Position numbers and translations under genes: made by a program | In this document: positions 1,361-2,004 of the stretch, piece after piece | Layout: every line of letters begins with the position of its first letter | Numbering within the stretch: the first letter of the stretch is position 1 | Notes under the pieces: model-generated | The model's input: only the letters and a program-made list of their open reading frames with translations | The model's database searches: none | What the model was told of the DNA's origin: nothing | Assembly: GCF_013425765.1 (NCBI RefSeq) | Contig: NZ_JACCJZ010000017.1 | Location: 124,001-188,000 of the forward strand | Length of the DNA stretch: 64,000 nucleotides | Reading direction: 5' to 3' | Origin: Luteimonas deserti | Lineage (GTDB): Bacteria > Pseudomonadota > Gammaproteobacteria > Xanthomonadales > Xanthomonadaceae

Positions 1361-1436
1361 GCCTTTGCCTTTGATTTTGCTTTTTGCTTTTGCTTTTTGC
1401 TTTTGCGTTTGCTTTTGTCTTGGCTTTGGCTTTGCG
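1361..1436 (+). repeat. left hexanucleotide tract of element copy 1 (GCTTTT-like)
   Basis: About 12 imperfect 6-7-nt units of the form GCTTTT, GCCTTT, GCGTTT or GCTTTG, pyrimidine-rich on the plus strand. The tract abuts the left arm of the palindromic element. Its reverse complement resembles the tract at 1951-2004, so the tracts are part of the inverted symmetry. Confidence 0.8.
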
Positions 1437-1446
1437 ATTGATCTGA

Positions 1447-1935
1447 TCGAGCCGTAAAGCGAGCCGAGCATCGCAGGGCGGCGGGGCCGAAGAGCGGCCA
1501 TGTCCGAGCGCAGCGAGTCCCGGCTGCGGAACCGTGAAGGTCCCGATGTGCCCCGCTGCCCGAGAAGCGCAGGGGCCCGTGGCGGCGGTATCGCGGCGGA
1601 TCGCGTCCGGCGAAGGGACTTTTGGTTCCTTTTTGGGCCTTCGAAAAGAAACTCGCACGCGCAGCGGGCGAACGCTATGCACTCGACTTGTTTGTTCCCC
1701 TAGGGCACACGCTGGGCGCGAAGAACAGAGCGCGCTGTTCGCGCGGCTCACTTTTGTCGTGTCAAAGGTAAGCAAAGACCGCCGTCGCCGGGCGCGGGCC
1801 GACGCGGCTGCGCCGCGCCGGTTCCCTGCGCTTCTCGCCGGACGCGGCACGGCACGCAGACTCGCTTCGCTCAGACATGGGCGCCTCTACGGCCGCGCCA
1901 GGCTTCGGTGCTCGGCCCGCTTGACGGCCCGAACG
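1447..1935. repeat. dispersed long-palindrome element, copy 1
   Basis: Left arm (about 1447-1602) and right arm (about 1796-1935) are imperfect inverted repeats. For example, CATGTCCGAGCGCAGCGAGT at 1499-1518 pairs with a near-complement around 1859-1879. Between them is a core (1603-1795) bounded by GCGTCCGGCGAAG (1603-1615) and its diverged complement (1783-1795). The core starts with TTTTGGTTCC-type sequence and ends with CTTTTGTCGTGTCAAAGGTAAG-type sequence. Copy 2 at 45.1-45.6 kb has homologous arms in the same orientation but the core flipped. No transposase or conserved ORF is present. It lies in an intergenic region after a terminator. I do not recognise it as a named element. Confidence 0.8.
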
Positions 1936-1950
1936 TCGAACGCTGAAAGC

Positions 1951-2004
1951 CAGAGCCAGAGCCAGAGCCAGAGCCAGAGCCAGAGCCGGAGCCGGAGCCA
2001 GAGC
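1951..2004 (+). repeat. right hexanucleotide tract of element copy 1 (CAGAGC)9
   Basis: Nine tandem hexamers, seven exactly CAGAGC and two CGGAGC, immediately outside the right arm. The regular repetition makes it a likely hot spot for slipped-strand length change. It gives a spurious Ser-Gln repeat when translated. Confidence 0.9.

What the first reader, a model, noticed from the sequence alone, without database searches (positions are those of the whole stretch)
1361..2004. Dispersed long-palindrome element with no protein, present twice in 64 kb
Two intergenic stretches 43 kb apart (here and 44969-45777) share arms, core and the same overall plan: hexamer tract, arm, core, inverted arm, hexamer tract. 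No transposase, integrase or conserved ORF is present. The copies are diverged but the inverted complementarity inside each copy is kept (in copy 2 a perfect 27-bp pair and 41 of 42 matches in another). This implies that base-pairing or DNA symmetry is selected, or that the arms convert each other. I do not recognise it as a named IS, MITE or REP class.
Basis: partly seen in the sequence, partly recalled or inferred. Interest (0 to 1): 0.8.

Follow-up and report, generated by a model that had tools for sequence, protein, structure and literature searches.

The report
Paired RNA-like repeat between genes
Two odd palindromes in a Luteimonas-type genome are each a pair of facing copies of one RNA-like folded repeat that is scattered, without any gene of its own, through many related bacteria and is not in the public RNA-family library we searched.

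Summary
Both stretches share hexamer tract, arm, core, inverted arm, tract. The genome holds five such elements plus a fragment; 23 of 52 congeners carry arms. What is conserved is not the long palindrome. Each arm is a module of local hairpins: across 107 modules, 97.9% of helix cells pair and 37 of 42 pairs show double changes. Changes to G-U outnumber changes to A-C (79 v 18), unlike unpaired columns (83 v 103), so pairing is selected on one strand, reading inward, as in RNA. The arms are A and B versions that do not convert each other. Modules occur in 77 of 297 family and 57 of 369 class genomes, singly or paired. No Rfam family matches above its cut-off; no transposase partner was found. 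Elements sit at gene 3' ends (23 convergent, 1 divergent of 43). Best reading: an undescribed class-wide interspersed element whose RNA must fold. Transcription, function and mover are inferred. Copy 1 is decayed.

The parts
1359..1433 (+). Copy 1, left hexamer tract (TTGCTT/GGCTTT type), pointing inward
   Evidence: Tandem Repeats Finder; sequence
1447..1672 (+). Copy 1, arm A module (sense +), decayed: folding z-score 0.0
1673..1726 (.). Copy 1, centre between the two modules
1727..1932 (-). Copy 1, arm B module (sense -), decayed: folding z-score -1.3
1948..2004 (-). Copy 1, right hexamer tract (AGCCAG on +, i.e. CTGGCT pointing inward)
   Evidence: Tandem Repeats Finder
45030..45098 (+). 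Copy 2, left degenerate hexamer tract (GGCTTC/GGCTTT type); edges by eye
   Evidence: sequence, period-6 test on 87 tracts
45103..45324 (+). Copy 2, arm A module (sense +) with hairpin T (GCTTACTTTTG...CAAAAGTAAGC) at its inner end; folding z -4.4
45325..45428 (.). Copy 2, centre between the two modules
45429..45636 (-). Copy 2, arm B module (sense -) with hairpin K (GGTTCCTTTTG...CAAAAGGGAC) at its inner end; folding z -4.5
45650..45700 (-). Copy 2, right hexamer tract (AAAGCC / GGAGCT on +); edges by eye
   Evidence: sequence

Best explanation
Each element is two copies of one ~210-nt structured module, inserted head-on (3' ends together), with a hexamer tract at each outer end. The module is an interspersed, non-autonomous element, not found in the libraries searched, present across the window's family and thinly across its class. 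Its strand reading inward from the tract folds as RNA into a chain of hairpins: outer helix, long H1 with nested H2 capped by TGTYTGAGCG/GCGAGTT, then H3, H4, H5. Shown: copies, architecture, compensatory pairing, one-strand G-U bias, position at gene 3' ends, shared positions in related species with empty sites elsewhere, homogenisation between loci, and flipping of the centre relative to the outer arms. Inferred: the RNA is made; its fold is what a trans-acting host or foreign factor recognises, probably through the highly conserved H2 cap, and this lets the element be copied or kept. Elements persist mainly where transcription from neighbouring genes ends, because folded RNA is harmful upstream of genes.
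For: Five elements plus a fragment in this genome. 23 of 52 congeners, 77 of 297 family genomes (19 of 54 genera), 57 of 369 class genomes (48 of 272 genera; 55 of the 57 outside the family; 42 of the 57 with best E of 1e-8 or less) by covariance models. 107 distinct modules: 97.9% of cells paired against 78.7% shuffled and 30-45% slid; 37 of 42 pairs with double changes, 786 cells. 41 class-level modules: 94.1% paired against 60.4% shuffled; 40 of 42 pairs, 507 cells. Inferred changes from Watson-Crick to G-U 79, to A-C 18; unpaired columns 83 v 103 for the equivalent substitutions. The bias holds without the Luteimonas arms (61 v 10), on pairs taken from the antisense fold (88 v 27), and in class-level rows (45 v 11; unpaired 99 v 83). 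Context: 23 convergent, 19 tandem, 1 divergent of 43 elements, against 16, 93, 70 of 179 module-free gaps. The epmA-mtnA site holds arms in 13 of 30 loci examined and is tight without them in G062 and four others.
Against: No expression data. The G-U bias cannot separate RNA from single-stranded DNA of that strand. Copy 1 does not fold clearly better than shuffles, so not every copy is under constraint. No mover was found and no target duplication could be read at the one empty site compared. The aligned rows were fitted to a model of the same structure, which favours it; one of the five measures was reached by 9 of 500 shuffles. E-values are rough (short calibration), and 15 of the 57 class genomes have only matches weaker than 1e-8. 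The context bias may be tolerance only; orthologous copies are not independent, and genes were called with a home-made score. 29 of 52 congeners have no module.
Confidence: 0.6

Rival explanations
1. Host-serving 3'-end RNA: the modules act in the tails of neighbouring transcripts, from both sides when genes converge, as stoppers, stabilisers or processing sites.
For: Strong 3'-end bias. One-strand pairing. A module lies at the same locus, between a UdgX-like gene and a radical-SAM gene (my reading of the translations), in genera g26 and g37, and a g49 locus clusters with them.
Against: Only 23 of 52 congeners have any; matches per module-bearing congener run from 2 to 36 arms. In the nine g26/g37 copies of that locus the module's sense strand is opposite to both neighbours. 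By eye no run of T follows the hairpins in the copies I read.
Confidence: 0.22
2. Single-stranded DNA substrate: the hairpins of one strand are recognised by a single-strand transposase, as for REP/RAYT or the TIR families flanking tyrosine transposases.
For: Also strand-specific. Some class-level modules sit in long terminal inverted repeats (L317, L321; by eye). Such TIR families are described (PMC3733652, passages read).
Against: Y1 transposase genes occur in 15 of 23 module-bearing and 18 of 29 module-free congeners. In 20 stretches around Y1 genes no module match was better than E 0.35. A profile of 11 Y1 proteins found no Y1 ORF in any module locus held at that point, only in the Y1 loci themselves (flanks mostly 1-1.5 kb). 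REPs are 20-40 bp with a GTAG or CGTC end.
Confidence: 0.18
3. Passive palindromes: hairpins made and kept perfect by template switching at replication forks, with no selection.
For: Quasi-palindrome correction yields double changes without selection (general knowledge, no call). The tracts look slippage-prone.
Against: It predicts equal G-U and A-C, but 79 v 18 was seen. Loop nucleotides of H2 are among the most conserved positions. The module is recognisable across the class.
Confidence: 0.05

Closest known systems
Intergenic repeats of Pseudomonas fluorescens (R0, R1, R2, R200 etc.; PMC2718517, passages read)
   Same: Dispersed, protein-less, several forming hairpins, biased to lie between convergent genes.
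   Different: Twelve families of 50-352 bp, with strain- and species-specific examples. The passages I read report no multi-helix covariation or strand-specific pairing. I did not compare the sequences.
GTAG/CGTC REPs, BIMEs and TIR families (PMC3733652, passages read)
   Same: Palindromic, found downstream of genes, sometimes paired head to head; G-T pairs in stems noted there too.
   Different: 20-40 bp stems with a tetranucleotide tag, GTAG ones linked to RAYT; here a ~210-nt multi-helix module without RAYT linkage.
BOX of pneumococcus, Correia/NEMIS, ERIC (recalled, not tested; PMC3049150 seen as a search listing with the start of its abstract)
   Same: Small, structured interspersed repeats without protein.
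   Different: Different sequence, hosts and fold as far as I recall; no comparison run.
Rfam structured RNAs
   Same: Covariation and G-U use as in functional RNA.
   Different: No family reached gathering score in the window. In nine module loci at E up to 1 there were three matches, all below gathering; one of them (CRISPR-DR20, E 0.27, opposite strand) lies inside the L318 module.

Membership tests
REP (GTAG/CGTC) | 20-40 bp single stem-loop | tested here: not met
   Module of 149 model positions with 42 pairs in 8 helices
REP (GTAG/CGTC) | Linked RAYT (Y1) transposase | tested here: not met
   Y1 in 15 of 23 module+ and 18 of 29 module- congeners; no module better than E 0.35 in 20 Y1 stretches; no Y1 ORF in module loci
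MITE of a DNA transposon | Fixed terminal inverted repeats shared with a resident IS | tested here: inconclusive
   Outer ends in Luteimonas are variable hexamer tracts. In 70 loci no recurrent neighbouring ORF family apart from one orthologous locus and ORFs that by eye read across the repeat or its tract. IS ends were not searched.
MITE of a DNA transposon | Target-site duplication | tested here: inconclusive
   Empty site in G062 compared by eye with filled relatives; flanks too diverged to read a duplication
Known Rfam RNA family | Match above gathering score | tested here: not met
   0 of 4227 families in the window; nine module loci at E up to 1: three matches, all below gathering, one inside a module on the opposite strand
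Functional structured RNA (kind) | Compensatory changes beyond controls | tested here: met
Functional structured RNA (kind) | G-U kept over A-C on one strand | tested here: met
Functional structured RNA (kind) | Transcribed | not testable with these tools
   No RNA-seq available
Phase-variable inverton | Invertible segment with switching in a population | not testable with these tools
   Flipped states seen between species only; no reads

The most novel reading that the evidence does not exclude
A class-wide RNA family, absent from Rfam 15 as far as searched, that spreads as a protein-less mobile element: its folded RNA, marked by a highly conserved TGTYTGAGCG/GCGAGTT cap, is the form recognised by an unknown enzyme in trans. 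In Luteimonas it became a two-sided element, A arm facing B arm.
Probability: 0.33. Interest if true: 0.92.

Novelty: new variant of a known kind. Interest (0 to 1): 0.74.

Why it matters
Bacterial interspersed repeats are usually treated as DNA palindromes. Here a large repeat family shows strand-specific, RNA-type pairing across a whole bacterial class, which makes it testable whether such repeats live as RNA. If it moves through RNA recognition, a protein-less mobile RNA element with an unknown mover would be exposed. If it serves its hosts, it is a widespread unstudied 3'-end RNA. Either way an annotation gap can be closed with the models built here.

Tried and rejected
Arms convert each other: rejected. 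Long arm-to-arm palindrome as the selected feature: rejected, since arms diverge while local hairpins stay paired. Coding element: four of twelve overlapping ORFs scanned, no Pfam match at E up to 0.01. Rfam family: none above cut-off. RAYT/REPtron: no linkage. Reverse transcriptase partner: RVT_1 in 10 of 23 module+ and 5 of 29 module- congeners, but absent from high-copy G020 and G022; not supported. Carriage by phages or plasmids: the window element had no plasmid match and a g26 module no plasmid or phage match; one exact pattern had no IMG/VR match. Of five further module queries against plasmids, two had none, one had only short stretches that lie between its two modules, one had a 71% match over 64% of the query in a Variovorax megaplasmid, and one a 21% match in Ilyobacter. 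Autonomous relative between spaced module pairs: ORFs in four such stretches (L343, L344, L345, L347) showed no transposase by eye and no shared gene; L346 was looked at only in the ORF clustering, and L348-L352 only in the Y1 profile search. Literature: eight searches, one of them for module sequence strings (0 papers), listed no description of it; the library is open-access only. Dropped rows: L070 (one arm at the threshold) and L015 (fragment) from the 44-element set; the 12 arms longer than 230 nt from alignment A1 (76 of 88 used); near-identical arms from A2 (41 of 76); identical rows in A3 (120 to 107).

Results against the reading: copy 1 arms do not clearly beat shuffles; single-energy z-scores were computed for the four window arms only; 29 of 52 congeners have no module.

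Full report
Observation. Both stretches are as described: tract, arm, core, inverted arm, tract. In copy 2 the longest exact inverted pair is 28 bp and a 41-of-42 match exists; in copy 1 the longest exact inverted pair is 14 bp. Copy 1 lies between a fatty-acid desaturase family gene (11-1159) and a UvrA-type gene (2217-4766); copy 2 lies between epmA (43962-44927) and mtnA (45896-46954). The window belongs to genome G000, which carries no name. Records holding the arm motif are Luteimonas, unnamed Lysobacteraceae, Pseudoxanthomonas, one Xanthomonas sp. and one unnamed proteobacterial bin, and several same-genus G genomes share contig lengths with the Luteimonas records. Family and class names (Xanthomonadaceae, Gammaproteobacteria) are recalled; the searches give only kinship.

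Copies. By BLAST G000 has 11 arm matches: five two-armed elements and one fragment; the covariance model R1 counts 12, so one further weak arm may exist. By BLAST 18 of 37 same-genus genomes in the sample match (two of them weakly), and one of 24 others weakly. By R1, 23 of 52 congeners match, with 2 to 36 matches each. I worked with 45 loci with a full arm, counting the two window copies; 44 had both arms.

Tracts. 79 of 87 outer flanks (90 nt each) contain a tandem hexamer. Mean self-identity at lag 6 is 0.57, against 0.31-0.33 at lags 5 and 7 and 0.32 at lag 6 in control windows. The inward strand is 6% A and 34% T. The commonest units are GGCTTT, GGCTTC, GGCTCT, TTGCTG and TTGCCG (rotations). 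Left and right tracts share the dominant unit in 4 of 35 elements, so they turn over independently. I have no explanation for period six.

The unit is the arm. Aligning arms shows a chain of hairpins. Arm A typically has GGGCGGCGGGGC pairing with GCCCCGTCGCCC; arm B has GCCTGGCGTGGC pairing with GCCACGTCAGGC. The arms therefore differ on both sides of the same stem, each keeping its own pairing and breaking arm-to-arm pairing. 39 of 44 elements have one A and one B arm by the 5' marker, and 43 of 44 have one hairpin of type K and one of type T (one unresolved). With all markers clear, 26 are A-T|K-B and 11 are A-K|T-B, so the centre has flipped relative to the outer arms. At the epmA locus, seven typed genomes show different arrangements and whole-element orientations.

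No arm-to-arm conversion. Within an element A-B identity averages 81.1%; A-B between elements 81.3%; A-A 86.9%; B-B 86.0%. Copies at orthologous loci exceed non-orthologous copies of the same two genomes by 0.67 points, positive in 34 of 74 comparisons. Copies are thus homogenised between loci, by conversion or replacement.

RNA-like selection. Modules were found alone in 20 of 20 stretches of about 5 kb (one of 2.7 kb) from genera g26, g36 and g37; the seven I printed have a hexamer-type 5' tract. In other genera they occur in pairs or in tandem. On 107 distinct modules of alignment A3, 97.9% of 4449 cells pair (shuffles 78.7%; slid partners 30-45%), and 37 of 42 pairs have double changes. 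On 41 modules from other families of the class, 94.1% pair (shuffles 60.4%) and 40 of 42 pairs have double changes; the count of further pair types was reached by 9 of 500 shuffles, the other measures by none. These alignments were fitted to the model, which favours it. The strand test leans on that less: parsimony on a FastTree tree gives 79 changes to G-U and 18 to A-C, while unpaired columns give 83 and 103 for the equivalent substitutions. It holds outside Luteimonas (61 v 10), on pairs from the antisense fold (88 v 27), and in the class-level set (45 v 11; unpaired 99 v 83). Template-switch repair of palindromes should not create this bias. RNA and single-stranded DNA of that strand remain undistinguished.

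Spread. 77 of 297 family genomes (19 of 54 genera). 57 of 369 class genomes (48 of 272 genera), 55 of the 57 outside the family, 42 of the 57 with best E of 1e-8 or less. 19 of 398 phylum genomes, all 19 from the same class (how many of the 398 lie in other classes is not shown). Large searches scored only 7 to 59 candidates a genome, so copy numbers there are lower bounds; E-values are rough. Several class-level hits lie at contig ends, as recent repeats do.

Place. Of 43 elements with both neighbours called, 23 lie between convergent genes, 19 tandem, 1 divergent, against 16, 93 and 70 of 179 module-free gaps of 100 nt or more in 97 loci (Fisher p 6e-10 for convergent, 3e-7 for divergent). 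Genes were called with a home-made codon score, and orthologous copies are not independent. The epmA-mtnA site shows arms in 13 of 30 loci examined (of 51 genomes with a match; only 30 loci were returned; in G036 and G068 one arm only). In G062, G013, G019, G003 and G070 the two genes are within about 150 bp of each other without arms. Single modules lie at the same UdgX-like/radical-SAM locus (names from my reading of the translations) in genera g26 and g37, and one g49 locus shares neighbours with them.

What was not found. No Rfam match above cut-off (one weak match, CRISPR-DR20 at E 0.27, lies inside the L318 module on the opposite strand), no Y1 or reverse-transcriptase linkage, no recurrent neighbour gene in 70 loci apart from that orthologous locus, no match in phages (one query) and only partial ones in plasmids. 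Eight literature searches listed no description. Nearest in print from passages read: P. fluorescens repeats with tail-to-tail bias (PMC2718517) and REP/TIR families (PMC3733652).

Reading. Steps shown: structure, strand, spread, place, shared loci, homogenisation, flips. Steps inferred: that the RNA is made, that a factor recognises it, and that this serves spread rather than the host. I put the interspersed RNA-element reading at 0.6, a host 3'-end role at 0.22, and a single-stranded DNA substrate at 0.18; these overlap in part.

Noticed in passing
window 44967-45015 and 45729-45772: A second repeat flanks copy 2 on both sides in inverted orientation (GTCATTCCCGCG... with CAGACGTACGTCTG; by eye, and an inverted pair). 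GTCATTCCCGCG-like sequence lies within 300 bp outside the arms in 11 of 44 elements; nested insertion or shared hot spots.
   Followed up: partly
Luteimonas elements: Outer tracts have period six (79 of 87 with a tandem hexamer), nearly no A on the inward strand, and mostly a GC at a fixed phase; left and right units differ. Cause unknown.
   Followed up: partly
L203, L205, L207, L210, L213, L214, L216, L218, L220: A single module sits between a UdgX-like gene and a radical-SAM DNA-repair-like gene in two genera, with its sense strand opposite to both genes; a g49 locus (L222) clusters with them. Gene names are my reading of the translations.
   Followed up: no
L224 (genome G094): Three modules in direct tandem, spaced 397-438 bp, each with its own TTGCCG/TTGATC tract: amplification of module plus tract as a unit.
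   Followed up: no
L317 and L321: In two class-level genomes the outer helix of the module runs on into long terminal inverted repeats, a fold-back element without hexamer tracts (by eye).
   Followed up: no
L012, L013, L014, L061, L075, L084 elements: Optional extra hairpins are inserted in one arm (about 60 nt before the T hairpin; GTCACCGTGAAGGTGAC beside H2 in some), so modules gain and lose whole hairpins.
   Followed up: no
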